The translations under genes and the position numbers were made by a program. Below are positions 55,097-60,740 of a DNA stretch of 64,000 bases, piece after piece. Positions within the stretch are counted from its first letter, which is position 1; each line of letters opens with the position of its first letter. A model generated the notes under the pieces. That model made no database searches. It saw only the letters and a list, made by a program, of their open reading frames with translations, and was not told where the DNA came from. The DNA is from Deltaproteobacteria bacterium GWC2_55_46. GTDB taxonomy: Bacteria > Desulfobacterota > GWC2-55-46. The DNA is taken from the NCBI GenBank assembly GCA_001595385.3, contig LVEI03000001.1, forward strand, positions 620,001-684,000. Reading direction: 5' to 3'.

Positions 55097-57283
55097 CTAT
55101 TTGAGCTTAAACCTCTTAACGCCCTCGGTCATCTGCCTGTCGAGCCTTGTAAGCTCCTCGACGGCCCTGTCCGTCTCGACCGCCTTTTCGATATTCTCAA
55201 CAGAGACCCTGTTGACCGCTTCGAGGGCCTCCAGGACCTTTGTCGTGTTCTTTATCTGCTCCTTTATCACATCATTTATATAGACCACCATCCTGTTGAC
55301 GTCCTCAATGGTGGATGTTATCTGGCGCGTGGCCTCGGCCTGAGACTTTGTCGTGCCCTTGACCCTGTATGTTATATCGGACATGCGCTCGGTCGCTTTA
55401 TTTATAAGCTCGCTGCCCCTTGTATGCTCCTGGGTCGCGTTCATGATCCTTCTTGTCATCTCGGCGACCTTTTCCGTTGCTTCGGCCACCATCCTGCTCT
55501 CCCTGGCCTGAAGCTCGGAGGCTGCCGCTATCTGCCGGACGCTCGTAGTGGACCTCTGCGCGCTCCCGGTTATCTTTCTCAAGCCCTCGCCGGCCTTCAT
55601 GGAAAGGCGCACCCCTTCCTCGACGCTCAGGTAACCCCTCTCCATCGACTTTACGGCCCTCTCGGACTCTATCTCGACCGAGTCGATTATATCGGAGACC
55701 TCCTTGGCCGAGGTCGAGGTCCTCTCGGCCAGGTCCTTTATCTCGTTTGCCACGACCGAGAAGCTCTTTCCGTGCTCGCCCGTCTGGGCGGCTATTATGG
55801 CCGCGTTCATGGCCAGGAGGTTCGTCTCCTCGGCCACCTCCTGTATCACATCGAGTATTTTGCCGATTTCTTTAATCTTTTCAGAGAGGCTATTTATTAT
55901 CTGCGTGGACTCCCGGGTTATCTCCTTTGTCTTCAATATCCCGTCTATGGTCGAGTCAACGGTGTCGGCCCCCGCCCTGGCGTCTTTTATGACCTCTTCG
56001 GCAAATTTTGACGCCTCCGCCGCGTTGGCCTCGACCTCCTTTATCTTCGCGTTTATATGCATCATCGACGAAGAGACCTGGGTGGCTGCCGAAGAAAGGC
56101 TCTCGATGTTCTCGGATATCTCTTTCATCGAGAAGGACATGTCCCTGGTCGATGTCGACGTCTCATCCACGCTCACCGAAAGGGACTCCATGCTGTCGAC
56201 GACCTCGTTTATGCCAGCCCCCAGCTCAAGAACCGATAACGAGCCCTTCTCCAGGGACTTGGCCAAAAGCTCAGTGTAGTTGGCTATGCCTGAAACCGAT
56301 GCGTTTATGCCCTCCATGCTCGACCCGATGGAGTCCAGGGCAGAGCCCTGGACGTTGGAACCTTCGAGCACGTGAGCGCTCATCTCGCGAACACGATGTG
56401 AGATGCCGGCGGCCTCGTCCGAGGTCCTCCTGATGTCCTCTATCATCCTGTGGAGGTTCTTTACCACATCGTTCATCTGCGCCCCAAGGTCTCCCAATTC
56501 GTCATTCGAGGTCACCTCGGCCTTGCCGGTCAAGTCCCCTGAGGCGAGGTGCCGGGTCGTATCGACCAGGGCCATTATGGGCATTGTGACGACCTTCCTT
56601 ATGAAGGCGAGCCCCGCCAGGCCCATGGCCAGGACCACGGCGAACCCGAAGGCGATAGAGCGCCAGACATCGCCCATGGCCGCGGCCAATTCGCTCTCTA
56701 TTGGTATTATTATCTCAAGCCCTCCGGCTACGTCGCCGATCTTGTAATCCCTCCTCGGGCTTGACGGCTGCGAGTTATGGCAGTCCACACAGGTCTGGGA
56801 CGTAGCCATGTCGGGTATCATGTACCTGACCGATTTCTTGCCCTTGTACTCCTCAAACCTGTAGAACTCGGTATCGGCTCCATTTACAAACTGCTTCAGG
56901 GCCTCTCTCTGGAAATCGTCCTTGGGCAGGTTTGCCGTATTGACCGGGTAAAGGCTCACGAGGTCCATATTTATAGCGCCCTCTACCCCGGTGGTCTGGG
57001 ATGCCTCCTTTATAAAGGTGAAATGGAGCGGTATCGCCCGTTCCTGGTCATGGTAGGTGCTCGATACGGTAAGCCCGGCGTCCAGCGCCCTTTTTACGAC
57101 AGTGGACGTATAATACTGGCGGGTGGCGTTTATCTCCCTGGAGAGAAAGCTCGCCGTCGTAAGCGCCATCCTCCGGGTCTGGGCGATCCTTTCCTTATAG
57201 ATATATACGCTGTATGCGCCGAAGATCATGGCCCAGGCAAGGGCTGCGAAGATGAGGAGCTTGACCCTGATACCGATTCTCAT
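55097..57283 (-). CDS. Methyl-accepting sensor with a periplasmic c-heme (Tll0287/DUF3365-like) domain
   Basis: 728 residues: TM1 (~8-28), periplasmic DUF3365-like domain (~30-200) with one heme-c motif, TCVDCH near 166, TM2 (~210-230), HAMP (~232-285) and a long signalling coiled coil. The tip reads AEETNLLAMNAAIIAAQTGEHGKSFSVV: Tsr trimer-contact positions Glu385 and Arg388 are Ile and Gln here, so a normal chemoreceptor trimer is doubtful. A heme sensor could detect redox state, NO or CO. No che genes are nearby. Confidence 0.88.
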   Translation of the reverse strand: MRIGIRVKLLIFAALAWAMIFGAYSVYIYKERIAQTRRMALTTASFLSREINATRQYYTSTVVKRALDAGLTVSSTYHDQERAIPLHFTFIKEASQTTGVEGAINMDLVSLYPVNTANLPKDDFQREALKQFVNGADTEFYRFEEYKGKKSVRYMIPDMATSQTCVDCHNSQPSSPRRDYKIGDVAGGLEIIIPIESELAAAMGDVWRSIAFGFAVVLAMGLAGLAFIRKVVTMPIMALVDTTRHLASGDLTGKAEVTSNDELGDLGAQMNDVVKNLHRMIEDIRRTSDEAAGISHRVREMSAHVLEGSNVQGSALDSIGSSMEGINASVSGIANYTELLAKSLEKGSLSVLELGAGINEVVDSMESLSVSVDETSTSTRDMSFSMKEISENIESLSSAATQVSSSMMHINAKIKEVEANAAEASKFAEEVIKDARAGADTVDSTIDGILKTKEITRESTQIINSLSEKIKEIGKILDVIQEVAEETNLLAMNAAIIAAQTGEHGKSFSVVANEIKDLAERTSTSAKEVSDIIDSVEIESERAVKSMERGYLSVEEGVRLSMKAGEGLRKITGSAQRSTTSVRQIAAASELQARESRMVAEATEKVAEMTRRIMNATQEHTRGSELINKATERMSDITYRVKGTTKSQAEATRQITSTIEDVNRMVVYINDVIKEQIKNTTKVLEALEAVNRVSVENIEKAVETDRAVEELTRLDRQMTEGVKRFKLK

Positions 57284-57484: not shown

Positions 57485-58144
57485 TCAGCCCAGCACGAGG
57501 CCACCCGCCTTCTGATCGAACCAGACGGCCTTCACGTCTGCCGGCTTTACGATGAAAGCCGCGTCAAGGACATAAGAGGCCTTCTCCCTGCCCCCGGCGT
57601 CGTACAGAAGGACCCTTACGCGATGAGAGCCGGGCTTGACGAATACCTCGTCGTAGACATACGAAGCCATGTCCTTCTTGATCCCCGTAGGCGCATAGGA
57701 CCTGTCCAATACCTTCTGCCCGTCGATGAATAGCTCAACGTCCACGGGGTGCCTCTCACGGGGGCAGTTCGCGATCCTTTCGATGTTCATCTTGACCTGC
57801 CTGGTTTCCTTCAGCTCCTGCCTGTACCTTTCGCCTTCCTGCCTTACAAGCCCTGCCTCGTCGCAGTCATAGACCTTCGCGCCCGTGTGCTTGAAGGCTA
57901 TCTTTAAAAGAGCGTCATCCGGGGCGAAGAACGAGTAAGGGGCCTCAGAGCCGAGATAGACCGGCACGGCCACTGCAAGGAGGAGCAAAGAGGCCCTTGC
58001 CACCAGCGCCGCGGAGACACTCTCTTTCTTACCAGGAGCCCTGCCTTCCCTCGCTTCACTTTCCCTCTTTTTCTTCCATTCCATCCACAATACTATCGCG
58101 ACAGGTATAAGGAAGGCGAGGAACGTTATCAGTATTATGACCAT
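57485..58144 (-). CDS. Membrane protein of unknown function linked to the cytochrome b fusion
   Basis: 219 residues: TM1 (IILITFLAFLIPVAIVLWM), a charged loop, TM2 (ASLLLLAVAVPVYLG), then an extracytoplasmic ~150-residue domain with VDVELFIDGQKVLDRSY and VKPGSHRVRVLLYDAGG, which looks like an all-beta fold. Two Cys (YDCDE, IANCPRE) could be metal or disulfide sites. I do not recognise the family. It begins three bases after the cytochrome b fusion gene and should act with it. Confidence 0.7.
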   Translation of the reverse strand: MVIILITFLAFLIPVAIVLWMEWKKKRESEAREGRAPGKKESVSAALVARASLLLLAVAVPVYLGSEAPYSFFAPDDALLKIAFKHTGAKVYDCDEAGLVRQEGERYRQELKETRQVKMNIERIANCPRERHPVDVELFIDGQKVLDRSYAPTGIKKDMASYVYDEVFVKPGSHRVRVLLYDAGGREKASYVLDAAFIVKPADVKAVWFDQKAGGLVLG

Positions 58145-58147
58145 ATC

Positions 58148-59728
58148 TTAGCGCCTCCGTTTAAGCGCCTCTGCGAACTCCTCAAGGCCTTTAAAGAACT
58201 CTTTACCCTCGGCGGACGAGAGGTATACGGCCTTGATCCTCGACCTGTCCAGGGACTTTCTCACCAAAGGCGGCCTGTAACCGAGAAGCCTGCCCATGAA
58301 CCACTCATTCCCCTTCCTGTAATGGCAGTCGCCATGGCGGCAGGCCGACACATAGACACCGTCCATTCCAAGAGATTTCTCAAAAGGTATGGAGAGCATC
58401 GAGGGCTGAAGCATACCGATGCAAGGCAGCGTTATGACCCGCGCCCACTCTATGCCCTCTACCACCCCATTCCCGTCTAACACACCGGGAAGGCGCGCCC
58501 CTTTGGCGCAGGCGAAGACGATGACCTTTATAACGCCTCCGGAATCCCTCAAGGCGCTTGCGTGCGAGCGTATCATCCCCTTGACGGCGTCTTCGGTAAT
58601 ATCAGGCAGGTCAAGGGCCTTGTAGTCGCAAGAGCCCATGCATATGCCGCAGCTCGCGCATCTTGCCGGAGATATCACCGCCTCCACCGGGTACGGCAGA
58701 TCATCCGTCCTCTTCCTCATGGATATGGCCTGGTACGGGCAGTCCTCCATACATAGCTCGCAACCGGTGCAGTTCTCGAGGGTAAGGCGTACGTGTGGGT
58801 TCCTCTTCCGCCTCGTAAGCCATGGCGCCGCGGCAACGGCCAGGGTCATGGCAACGATAAAGACCCATAGCTGGTGCGCGCTCATGAACCTCAACAGGGG
58901 GAAGATGAACATGTAGAACCAGTCGAAAGGCACGCTCCCGGCAAGCCTTCCAAGCTCGGCCTGAGGCGCGCTTGTGGCTGGCTTTATGAATGAGAGCGCG
59001 AGGAGAGCGACCATAAGCGCGTATGCAAGCACCCTCGGCGGGTTTATGACGGCCTTCGTCACCCTGACGAGGTGGATGAGTATGAGTAAGAATATAAAGA
59101 ATATGGTGGAGAAATGGATAAAGAGGATGATGTAGAAGAGCTGGTCCGTGAGGTTCTCCACCCTTGCGAAATTGAGGCTCAGCGGGAGGCCGAATATCGG
59201 CAGGTTCTCGAGCATGTGGGCCGAAAGCGTCGCGATGAGCTTGGCCCGCTCATCCCATACCATCCAGTACCCGAAGATGCCTCCGGCCCATATGGCCCAC
59301 GCTATGGCTATCCCGGAGACCCAGGCCAGCCACCTCCAGTGGGTGTGCCGCCCGAGCGCGAAGCAGCGCATCGCATGGAAGAGCATCGTTACGACCAGGC
59401 CGTCAGAGGCGTACCTGTGGAGGCTCCTCATCACCCCGCCGAGATACCACTGGTTCACTGTGAGCTTCTGGACGGAAAAATACGCGCCCTTGGCGCTGAT
59501 GCTGTAGAAGAGGAAGAGATAGATGCCAGAGACCAGGATGACCCAGAGGAGGAATATGCCGATTGCGCCGAGGAAATATAATGGGTTGTACTCTGCGGTG
59601 GTGAGCCTGTTGACCAGGGCCTCCATCTTGAGCCACGAAGCCTCAAGAAGACCGGGCCCGGCAAAACCGCGCGCTGGCCCGGCGCTACGCTCTTTCAAGC
59701 CCCCTTCCACAGGGGAAATACCAGCCAT
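58148..59728 (-). CDS. Cytochrome b / two [4Fe-4S] / MvhD-like fusion protein
   Basis: 526 residues with three parts. Residues ~35-250 form a bc1-type cytochrome b N-terminal half with His104/His118 and His205/His219, each pair 14 apart as for two b hemes. After another membrane segment (~283-300) come two ferredoxin clusters (Cys320/323/326/330 and 357/360/363/367). Residues ~400-526 resemble the MvhD/FlpD subunit with Cys407, 436, 463 and 468 (SACRHGDCHYRKGN). Such a protein could pass electrons between quinones and a cytosolic carrier. Start follows the SCO stop with AAGGAAGG upstream. Confidence 0.85.
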   Translation of the reverse strand: MAGISPVEGGLKERSAGPARGFAGPGLLEASWLKMEALVNRLTTAEYNPLYFLGAIGIFLLWVILVSGIYLFLFYSISAKGAYFSVQKLTVNQWYLGGVMRSLHRYASDGLVVTMLFHAMRCFALGRHTHWRWLAWVSGIAIAWAIWAGGIFGYWMVWDERAKLIATLSAHMLENLPIFGLPLSLNFARVENLTDQLFYIILFIHFSTIFFIFLLILIHLVRVTKAVINPPRVLAYALMVALLALSFIKPATSAPQAELGRLAGSVPFDWFYMFIFPLLRFMSAHQLWVFIVAMTLAVAAAPWLTRRKRNPHVRLTLENCTGCELCMEDCPYQAISMRKRTDDLPYPVEAVISPARCASCGICMGSCDYKALDLPDITEDAVKGMIRSHASALRDSGGVIKVIVFACAKGARLPGVLDGNGVVEGIEWARVITLPCIGMLQPSMLSIPFEKSLGMDGVYVSACRHGDCHYRKGNEWFMGRLLGYRPPLVRKSLDRSRIKAVYLSSAEGKEFFKGLEEFAEALKRRR

Positions 59729-60556
59729 TCACACCTTCCTTTTTTTTGAAAACCGTTTCCCTATCCTCCGGCCCCAGACCGCGTAGACGATTATGCCTAT
59801 GATAAGCGCCTGTATGAAGATGCTTACGAAGACCGGATAATCGAGCACATATTTTCCGGTATATGGGTCGTACCTGTAGCAGAAGAACTTGATCTTATCG
59901 ACCATGGAAAGGGTATTGCCGCCTTCAGCCTTTCCTGTTATAAGCTCATCGAGCCTCAAGCCGAGGTTCTGCGGCTGGGTCCGCAAGCTGTATATCTGCC
60001 TGTATATCGTCCCGTCGGGCCTCACGACGGTCGTCATGTCCATATGGTCGAAGCTCCCGTCATCCTGCTTTACGTGGAAAAAACCCGTGTCGCTCAAGAG
60101 CCTCTCGATAGTCTCCATGTCTCCGGCGGCGAACCTGAATCCCTTGAAGCTCTTCGTGAACCTCAAGCCGTACTCCTTCATCGCCTCAGGCGTGTCGTTT
60201 ACCGGGTCAAAGCCGATGGTCAAGACCTCGAACCTGTCACCGAACTTCGAACGCGCCCCGTCGACCGCCTTTTTAAGCTCCATCGTTATCGTCGGGCAGA
60301 CCTGGGGACAGCTCGTATAGATGTAGCTCAGGACAAGGGGCTTGCCGTCCTTGAAATACTCGCTTAAAGAGAAGCTGACCCCGTCCTGGTCGACGAGCTT
60401 GTAGTCGCCGGGTTTTTTCCCCTCTGCCGCTATCGAATTGTCCACGGCGTTCTTGAGCACCACAGGGTCAAGGCCCTGGGCAGCGCCGGATAGCGGCGCG
60501 TAGCCCAGGATGAAGGAAAAAGAGAGGAGCAACGCTCTAAAGATATTTACAGGCAT
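59729..60556 (-). CDS. SCO1/SenC-family copper chaperone
   Basis: 275 residues, thioredoxin-like. Signal peptide (IFRALLLSFSFILGYAPLSG), copper site YTSCPQVCPTITM (Cys-x3-Cys) and later His in GSFDHMDMTT, plus an unusual C-terminal transmembrane helix (VFVSIFIQALIIGIIVYAVW). SCO proteins load CuA in oxidase subunit II, which is encoded 2 kb away in the same direction. I use ATG 60556 with AGGA upstream; ATG 60571 is possible. Confidence 0.9.
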   Translation of the reverse strand: MPVNIFRALLLSFSFILGYAPLSGAAQGLDPVVLKNAVDNSIAAEGKKPGDYKLVDQDGVSFSLSEYFKDGKPLVLSYIYTSCPQVCPTITMELKKAVDGARSKFGDRFEVLTIGFDPVNDTPEAMKEYGLRFTKSFKGFRFAAGDMETIERLLSDTGFFHVKQDDGSFDHMDMTTVVRPDGTIYRQIYSLRTQPQNLGLRLDELITGKAEGGNTLSMVDKIKFFCYRYDPYTGKYVLDYPVFVSIFIQALIIGIIVYAVWGRRIGKRFSKKRKV

Positions 60557-60740
60557 CTTTTTTATCCTCATTATCAAAATGATATCAACCCGGAAGTGGT
60601 CTCGGTATGATTTTTATCATCAAAGACTACTATAGTTTCGAAATCCTGAATCTATGCCGTCCTAAGAAGGCCCGGCCAGGGCCGGGCTGAGTTTTAATTA
60701 TAACATTTCAGGGATAGGGAATACAAACCGCCATATCTGC

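What the first reader, a model, noticed from the sequence alone, without database searches (positions are those of the whole stretch)
58148..59728. Three-part redox fusion: diheme cytochrome b, two [4Fe-4S] clusters, MvhD-like domain
One protein combines bc1-type heme ligands (two His pairs 14 apart), eight ferredoxin Cys and an MvhD/FlpD-like Cys set. MvhD normally links hydrogenase or formate dehydrogenase to heterodisulfide reductase. A fusion to a membrane cytochrome b suggests a direct wire between the quinone pool and a cytosolic disulfide or ferredoxin partner, and it sits next to SCO1 and the putative NOR.
Basis: partly seen in the sequence, partly recalled or inferred. Interest (0 to 1): 0.65.

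Follow-up and report, generated by a model that had tools for sequence, protein, structure and literature searches.

The report
Cytochrome b–ferredoxin–MvhD partner of eNOR
One bacterial membrane protein joins a heme-carrying cytochrome b to iron-sulfur electron relays on the cytoplasmic side, and it occurs almost only in genomes that carry an unusual nitric-oxide reductase, so it probably wires electrons into that enzyme (or into building it) by a route not described in the papers we could search.

Summary
Window 58148-59728 (-) is one intact 526-aa ORF: a bc1-type cytochrome b (His 104/118 and 205/219), two further TM helices with a PEWY-like motif, two [4Fe-4S] motifs and an FlpD/MvhD domain. 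It is not a frame error: the same order is one ORF in dozens of genomes of its class and in a second, Chloroflexi-type phylum. All 4 His and 8 ferredoxin Cys are invariant.

The partner is not Hdr. The gene lies in a conserved operon CuA-COX2, COX1, SCO, this gene, orf219. COX1 has the Gln (HPSQQ) that marks eNOR. Presence tracks eNOR: 29 of 33 carriers in relatives (p 2e-10) and 11 of 11 in the second phylum (p 2e-14). Orf219 (TM plus periplasmic beta-sandwich) is fused to its C-terminus in many relatives. A third clade adds a cytochrome c domain and sits beside a ba3-like O2 reductase. In the eNOR clade of the second phylum the FlpD Cys are lost.

Best reading (0.5): a Rieske-less, bc1-like electron conduit from cytoplasmic Fe-S, and/or quinol, through hemes b to a CuA heme-copper reductase. 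Main rival (0.25): a CcoG-like reductase for copper-site assembly. Electron direction and donor are not shown.

The parts
58148..59728 (-). cytochrome b - 2x[4Fe-4S] - FlpD fusion protein, 526 aa (CYTB)
   Evidence: AF2 mean pLDDT 82.4
59054..59605 (-). bc1-type cytochrome b core, residues 42-225; heme ligands H104/H118 and H205/H219
   Evidence: Pfam PF00033; His invariant; VIA Z 20-24 to bc1 cytochrome b over residues ~33-308
58805..59053 (-). two extra TM helices (residues 232-248, 284-304) with PEWY-like DWFY at 269-272
58604..58792 (-). two [4Fe-4S] ferredoxin motifs, residues 313-375
   Evidence: Pfam Fer4_7; 8 Cys invariant
58160..58525 (-). FlpD/MvhD domain, residues 402-523 (4 of the 5 MvhD Cys)
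   Evidence: Pfam PF02662 E 2e-18; PDB MvhD alignments
57485..58144 (-). orf219: TM helices plus periplasmic beta-sandwich; partner subunit, fused to the CYTB C-terminus in relatives
59729..60577 (-). SCO1/SenC copper chaperone; its stop codon abuts the CYTB start
   Evidence: Pfam PF02630
60927..62435 (-). heme-copper subunit I of eNOR type (HPSQQ: Gln in place of the oxidase Tyr; CuB His-His present)
   Evidence: criterion from PMC8756737
62664..63197 (-). subunit II with CuA site (IQH...CNEFCGVGHHMM)
   Evidence: Pfam COX2; alignment

Best explanation
The protein (with orf219) is a Rieske-less, bc1-like transmembrane electron conduit dedicated to a CuA-type heme-copper reductase: eNOR here, a ba3-like O2 reductase in a sister clade. 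SHOWN by sequence: one chain carries two bis-His heme sites spanning the membrane, two [4Fe-4S] motifs and an FlpD domain predicted on the cytoplasmic side (positive-inside, six TM helices), plus a separate or fused periplasmic-side domain; it tracks eNOR across two phyla. INFERRED: electrons enter at the cytoplasmic ferredoxin/FlpD module (donor unknown) and/or from quinol at a degenerate Qo-like site, pass through the b hemes, and leave on the periplasmic face to CuA. In the ba3-linked clade a fused cytochrome c makes the last hop; in the eNOR clades orf219 would dock the partner.
For: Conserved operon COX2-COX1(eNOR)-SCO-CYTB-orf219 across the family and order. SCO stop abuts the CYTB start and orf219 follows after 3 bp. 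Co-occurrence with eNOR 29/33 in relatives and 11/11 in the second phylum. A different operon in the second phylum (COX2-COX1-DsbD_2-Cu ATPase-CYTB) keeps the pair together. A 4-member clade lies directly after a B-family O2 reductase (HPLVYFW) with CuA and carries a C-terminal cytochrome c, CRICH. Orf219 is fused in many relatives. Hemes and Fe-S motifs are invariant. Three genomes scored 100% complete (G009, G012, G014) have eNOR and CYTB but no detected Rieske protein or bc cytochrome b. bc1 fold Z 20-24. A NirS-type cluster 24-33 kb away could supply NO.
Against: This genome also has a Rieske-cytb-cytc complex, so eNOR could be fed conventionally. No redox centre is recognised in orf219, so the last hop to CuA in the eNOR clades is unspecified. 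Net electron flow from cytoplasm to periplasm would spend membrane potential. Many eNOR loci in the second phylum lack CYTB (14 of 25 genomes). Some carriers lack a detected eNOR (G054, 99% complete; G018; G041; G027). Copper-assembly genes (SCO, Cu ATPase) are the other constant neighbours, as an assembly role would predict.
Confidence: 0.5

Rival explanations
1. It is a CcoG/FixG-like assembly reductase: cytosolic electrons pass through Fe-S and hemes to the periplasmic face to reduce Cu(II), or SCO/CuA thiols, for building the copper sites of eNOR or ba3; it is not a turnover donor.
For: CcoG has membrane helices, two [4Fe-4S] clusters and a C-terminal periplasmic Ig-like domain, sits in an oxidase cluster with a Cu ATPase, and reduces Cu(II) (PMC7558416): the same overall plan as CYTB+orf219. 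CYTB directly abuts SCO here and a Cu-type P1B ATPase in the second phylum. Some eNOR loci without CYTB carry oxidase-assembly factors instead: CtaA/CtaB, CtaG. orf219 has an invariant Cys pair, C94/C127, in the separate-gene form.
Against: CcoG is not a diheme bc1-type cytochrome b and has no MvhD domain (own knowledge). No FixG_C (PF11614) hit for orf219 even at E 10. The fused cytochrome c next to the ba3-type oxidase looks like a turnover donor. The orf219 Cys pair is absent from several fused relatives.
Confidence: 0.25
2. Quinol-driven reduction of a cytosolic low-potential acceptor: quinol is oxidised at the Qo-like site, one electron goes to CuA/eNOR and the other via bL-bH to ferredoxin/FlpD.
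For: bc1 fold including helices E/F and a PEWY-like motif with a nearly invariant Asp. The Fd-FlpD module is homologous to the C-terminal tail of HdrA2 (NCBIfam E 8.6e-31). A soluble HdrCBA-MvhD locus exists in the genome.
Against: No Rieske protein in the operon. The motif is not PEWY (DW in most, DS/DA/DL in the second phylum). The FlpD Cys are lost in one clade. No Hdr gene was identified beside CYTB in any locus examined.
Confidence: 0.15
3. Cytosolic donor:quinone oxidoreductase: FlpD/Fd electrons reduce quinone at the cytoplasmic-side (Qi-like) pocket, and the eNOR linkage is only co-regulation.
For: The Fe-S domains face the heme bH side; a Rieske-less cytochrome b plus ferredoxin is enough for this. 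Some carriers lack eNOR.
Against: It does not explain the fused periplasmic domain, the cytochrome c tail, or 11/11 co-occurrence with eNOR in a second phylum.
Confidence: 0.07
4. Artefact: a frame error or assembly error joining separate genes.
For: None found.
Against: One uninterrupted ORF here and in dozens of genomes of two phyla.
Confidence: 0.01

Closest known systems
Cytochrome b of bc1/b6f complexes (PF00033; Complex III)
   Same: Fold of residues ~33-308 (Z 20-24), four heme-ligand His, bc1-like 14-residue spacing, PEWY-like segment
   Different: No Rieske or cytochrome c1 in the operon; only 6 TM helices, then cytosolic ferredoxin and FlpD; a separate normal bc complex exists in this genome
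HdrA2 / type Ia HdrA C-terminal tail (NF040770; PMC12054007)
   Same: Contiguous ferredoxin-MvhD module, homologous over residues 315-523 (E 8.6e-31)
   Different: No FAD/thioredoxin-reductase core; the module hangs on a membrane cytochrome b; no HdrB/C nearby
MvhD/FlpD/VhuD [2Fe-2S] subunit
   Same: FlpD domain above the Pfam cut-off; 4 conserved Cys
   Different: One of the CxxC Cys missing; all four lost in one clade; no hydrogenase or formate dehydrogenase partner
CcoG/FixG/RdxA cupric reductase of cbb3 assembly
   Same: Membrane helices + 2x[4Fe-4S] + periplasmic Ig-like domain; next to a heme-copper reductase and copper-delivery genes
   Different: Has two b-heme sites and FlpD; no sequence match of orf219 to FixG_C detected
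eNOR (neighbouring COX1/COX2)
   Same: Gln at the active-site Tyr position, CuA subunit II (PMC8756737 criterion)
   Different: Published eNOR neighbourhoods that we could read do not mention this partner protein
ExtP b-type cytochrome (NF040969)
   Same: Best curated cytochrome-b model for residues 47-227 (E 5.5e-24)
   Different: Score 85 versus cut-off 290; the model covers only the cytochrome b core, not the fused Fe-S domains

Membership tests
bc1/b6f complex (quinol:cytochrome c oxidoreductase) | Cytochrome b with four heme-ligand His | tested here: met
   H104/H118/H205/H219 invariant
bc1/b6f complex (quinol:cytochrome c oxidoreductase) | Rieske protein encoded with cytochrome b | tested here: not met
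   None in the operon; the genome's two Rieske hits lie at C1:1.06 and 1.63 Mb, one of them in the separate bc locus
bc1/b6f complex (quinol:cytochrome c oxidoreductase) | PEWY Qo-site motif | tested here: inconclusive
   PEWY-like FDWFY; Asp nearly invariant, Trp not kept in most second-phylum proteins
HdrA2 / type Ia HdrA | C-terminal ferredoxin + MvhD tail | tested here: met
   NF040770 574-769 vs residues 315-523
HdrA2 / type Ia HdrA | FAD/thioredoxin-reductase core; full-model score over cut-off | tested here: not met
   106.8 bits versus cut-off 1100; the rest of the chain is cytochrome b
MvhD/FlpD | FlpD domain | tested here: met
   PF02662 66.9 bits vs cut-off 22.3
MvhD/FlpD | Full MvhD Cys set including CxxC | tested here: not met
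   4 of 5 Cys; none in the CopA-type clade
CcoG/FixG | Two [4Fe-4S] motifs in a membrane protein encoded next to a heme-copper reductase | tested here: met
CcoG/FixG | FixG_C Ig-like periplasmic domain | tested here: inconclusive
   beta-sandwich predicted but no PF11614 hit for 25 orf219 members at E<=10
CcoG/FixG | Cu(II) reductase activity | not testable with these tools
   needs purified protein
eNOR (neighbour COX1/COX2) | Gln at the oxidase Tyr position, CuB His-His, CuA subunit II | tested here: met
   HPSQQ, EHHLLVDP, CNEFCGVGHHMM; criterion from PMC8756737
eNOR (neighbour COX1/COX2) | NO reductase activity | not testable with these tools
   biochemistry needed

The most novel reading that the evidence does not exclude
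A new respiratory complex: a Rieske-less cytochrome bc-type protein that takes electrons from a cytosolic donor through an HdrA2-like ferredoxin/FlpD module and delivers them across the membrane to the CuA site of a nitric-oxide (or oxygen) reductase, or that runs a quinol bifurcation between eNOR and a cytosolic acceptor.
Probability: 0.35. Interest if true: 0.85.

Novelty: new variant of a known kind. Interest (0 to 1): 0.62.

Why it matters
The papers we could read do not settle what feeds eNOR. This gives a genetically linked candidate donor (or assembly reductase) conserved in two phyla of mostly uncultured bacteria. If it is a donor, NO reduction can bypass the bc complex and draw electrons from the cytosol, changing energy budgets for N2O formation. 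It also offers natural experiments: separate, fused, cytochrome c-tailed and FlpD-dead versions of the same machine.

Tried and rejected
Frame error: rejected, one ORF in many genomes. Hdr/disulfide partner: no Hdr, hydrogenase or FDH genes identified in the loci annotated; the genome's HdrCBA-MvhD locus is separate. orf219 as Rieske, cupredoxin or FixG_C: no convincing Pfam match; Foldseek gave nothing at E<=0.001; VIA best Z 8.9 (rmsd 2.8 over 94 residues, chain 8jkv_A; HGSNAT entries tie at 8.1-8.7), a middling score by the tool's own note. CYTB as sole substitute for the bc complex: only partly supported; 15 of 33 carriers have a bc cytochrome b, and three 100%-complete genomes have neither Rieske nor bc b, but alternative complex III was not searched. 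Literature: no paper found describing this fusion; the likely key eNOR paper (PNAS, doi 10.1073/pnas.2316422121, named from memory) is not held, so prior mention there cannot be excluded. CuNIR not found. One search was a mis-specified alignment and carries no information.

Full report
OBSERVATION. The ORF at 58148-59728 (minus strand, 526 aa, ATG start) is intact. Pfam places Cytochrome_B at 42-225, a 4Fe-4S dicluster at 319-371 and FlpD at 402-523, each above its curated cut-off. In 37 aligned homologues the four bis-His ligands (104/118, 205/219; 14-residue spacing), eight ferredoxin Cys and four FlpD Cys are invariant. AlphaFold2 (34 sequences) gives mean pLDDT 82.4: amphipathic helix 27-42, TM A 49-73, B 94-125, C 129-157, D 195-223, E 232-248 and F 284-304, then ferredoxin and FlpD. 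Residues about 33-308 match bc1 cytochrome b at Z 20-24. K+R density is 2.1-3.9 per 10 residues in the predicted cytoplasmic loops BC, DE and after F, against about 0.8 in the periplasmic loops; the N-terminal segment (0.9) is neutral on this point. That places ferredoxin and FlpD in the cytoplasm. Helices E/F flank a FDWFY segment that aligns, with a one-residue shift, near PEWY of the genome's own bc cytochrome b.

NOT AN ARTEFACT, AND NOT LOCAL. The same domain order is one ORF in the same genus, family, order and class, in 11 of 297 sampled genomes of the phylum including the window's own and in 11 of 350 genomes of a Chloroflexi-type phylum (phylum named from the title of L025). The Fd-FlpD part is related to the tail of HdrA2; type Ia HdrA proteins with a fused MvhD are known (PMC12054007). 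So that half of the fusion has precedent. The cytochrome b half does not, as far as the held literature shows.

NEIGHBOURHOOD. In the window the order (minus strand) is COX2, COX1, SCO1, CYTB, orf219. The SCO stop abuts the CYTB start and orf219 follows after 3 bp. COX1 has HPSQQ where O2 reductases have HPxxY; Gln at that position is the published eNOR marker (PMC8756737). COX2 has a CuA site. This gene order recurs in most family- and order-level relatives with long enough contigs. Orf219 has no Pfam hit. It is predicted as TM helices plus a beta-sandwich, and in many relatives it is fused to the CYTB C-terminus, so it is a real subunit and puts a domain on the periplasmic side.

CO-OCCURRENCE. 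In 59 relatives CYTB is in 33 genomes, eNOR in 31 and both in 29 (Fisher p 2e-10); among genomes at least 90% complete the table is 24/3/0/16 (both / CYTB only / eNOR only / neither; p 4e-9). One of the two eNOR-only cases, G006, ends at a contig edge just after SCO. In the second phylum all 11 CYTB genomes carry eNOR, against 25 of 350 overall (p 2e-14). Shared ancestry inflates these p-values, but the two phyla use different operon layouts (SCO here; DsbD_2 and a Cu P1B-ATPase there).

THREE INFORMATIVE VARIANTS. (i) Nine second-phylum proteins, mostly beside eNOR and a Cu ATPase, keep the hemes and ferredoxin but have lost all four FlpD Cys: the FlpD cluster is dispensable. (ii) Four proteins of 778-795 aa sit directly after a B-family O2 reductase (HPLVYFW, Tyr present; CuA subunit and SCO nearby) and carry an extra C-terminal cytochrome c (CRICH; Pfam Cytochrom_C). 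(iii) The Desulfobacterota-type set keeps everything, with orf219 separate or fused. Common to all: heme b ligands, two [4Fe-4S] motifs, in nearly all a periplasmic domain, and usually a CuA heme-copper reductase in the locus or genome.

MECHANISM. I favour an electron conduit to the CuA reductase (0.5). Shown: parts, predicted topology, linkage. Inferred: direction and donor. The cytochrome c tail beside an O2 reductase is the strongest hint that electrons leave on the periplasmic side. Three genomes scored 100% complete (G009, G012, G014) have eNOR and CYTB but no Rieske or bc cytochrome b detected, so eNOR there is probably not fed by that bc complex (alternative complex III not tested; Rieske hits in near relatives sit close to the detection limit). 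Rival: a CcoG-like cupric reductase for assembly (0.25). CcoG has the same plan of membrane helices, two [4Fe-4S] and an Ig-like periplasmic domain (PMC7558416), and copper-delivery genes are constant neighbours. Quinol-to-cytosol wiring or bifurcation stays possible (0.15).

ORGANISM CONTEXT. The closest named relatives are MAGs such as Deltaproteobacteria GWA2_55_10, which from memory fall in GTDB class GWC2-55-46; that class makes ubiquinone by an O2-independent pathway (PMC13386864). The genome has three cytochrome d1-type (NirS-family) hits 24-33 kb from the operon and no detected CuNIR, so NO formation is plausible.

LIMITS. No multimer model, no biochemistry, sampled rather than exhaustive genome searches, and the main eNOR survey paper was not readable.

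Noticed in passing
window 55097-57283 (-): Methyl-accepting chemotaxis protein with a Tll0287-like (heme-type) sensor domain and a CxxCH motif sits next to the operon in most family-level relatives; possible NO/redox taxis receptor.
   Followed up: partly
L021:1529-4320, L024:235-2206, L067:12978-14960: Just upstream of eNOR a second COX2-COX1 pair with HILMN (Asn at the Tyr position, as in sNOR/CuANor), preceded in L021 by a NarI-type nitrate reductase gamma subunit: tandem NORs in a denitrification cluster.
   Followed up: partly
L069:11530-13008, L070:6700-8073, L072:2511-3929, L085:5785-7179: COX1-family paralogue, beside eNOR in three of these loci, that keeps one helix-VI His (GHILQF) but lacks the CuB His-His pair; function unclear.
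   Followed up: no
L109, L113, L117, L121: 778-795 aa CYTB relatives with a fused C-terminal cytochrome c directly after a B-family O2 reductase.
   Followed up: yes
L081 (G000:C1:1991500-2009000): HdrC-HdrB-HdrA-FlpD plus Flox-like and fumarate/succinate TCA genes (read from ORF translations): a separate soluble Hdr system with the only other FlpD in the genome.
   Followed up: partly
G000:C1:706808-715722: Three cytochrome d1 (NirS-family) hits about 24-33 kb from the eNOR operon.
   Followed up: partly
L018 / L061: Tandem duplication of CYTB flanking orf219 in one genome.
   Followed up: no
L023 / L058: In one relative COX1, CYTB and the chemoreceptor are each split into two frames: sequencing indels or a decaying operon copy; another copy of CYTB in the same genome (L003/L028) is intact.
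   Followed up: no
L126-L132, L136: Second-phylum eNOR loci without CYTB; some carry a CtaA-CtaB fusion or CtaG assembly genes, others large unidentified ORFs next to COX1.
   Followed up: partly
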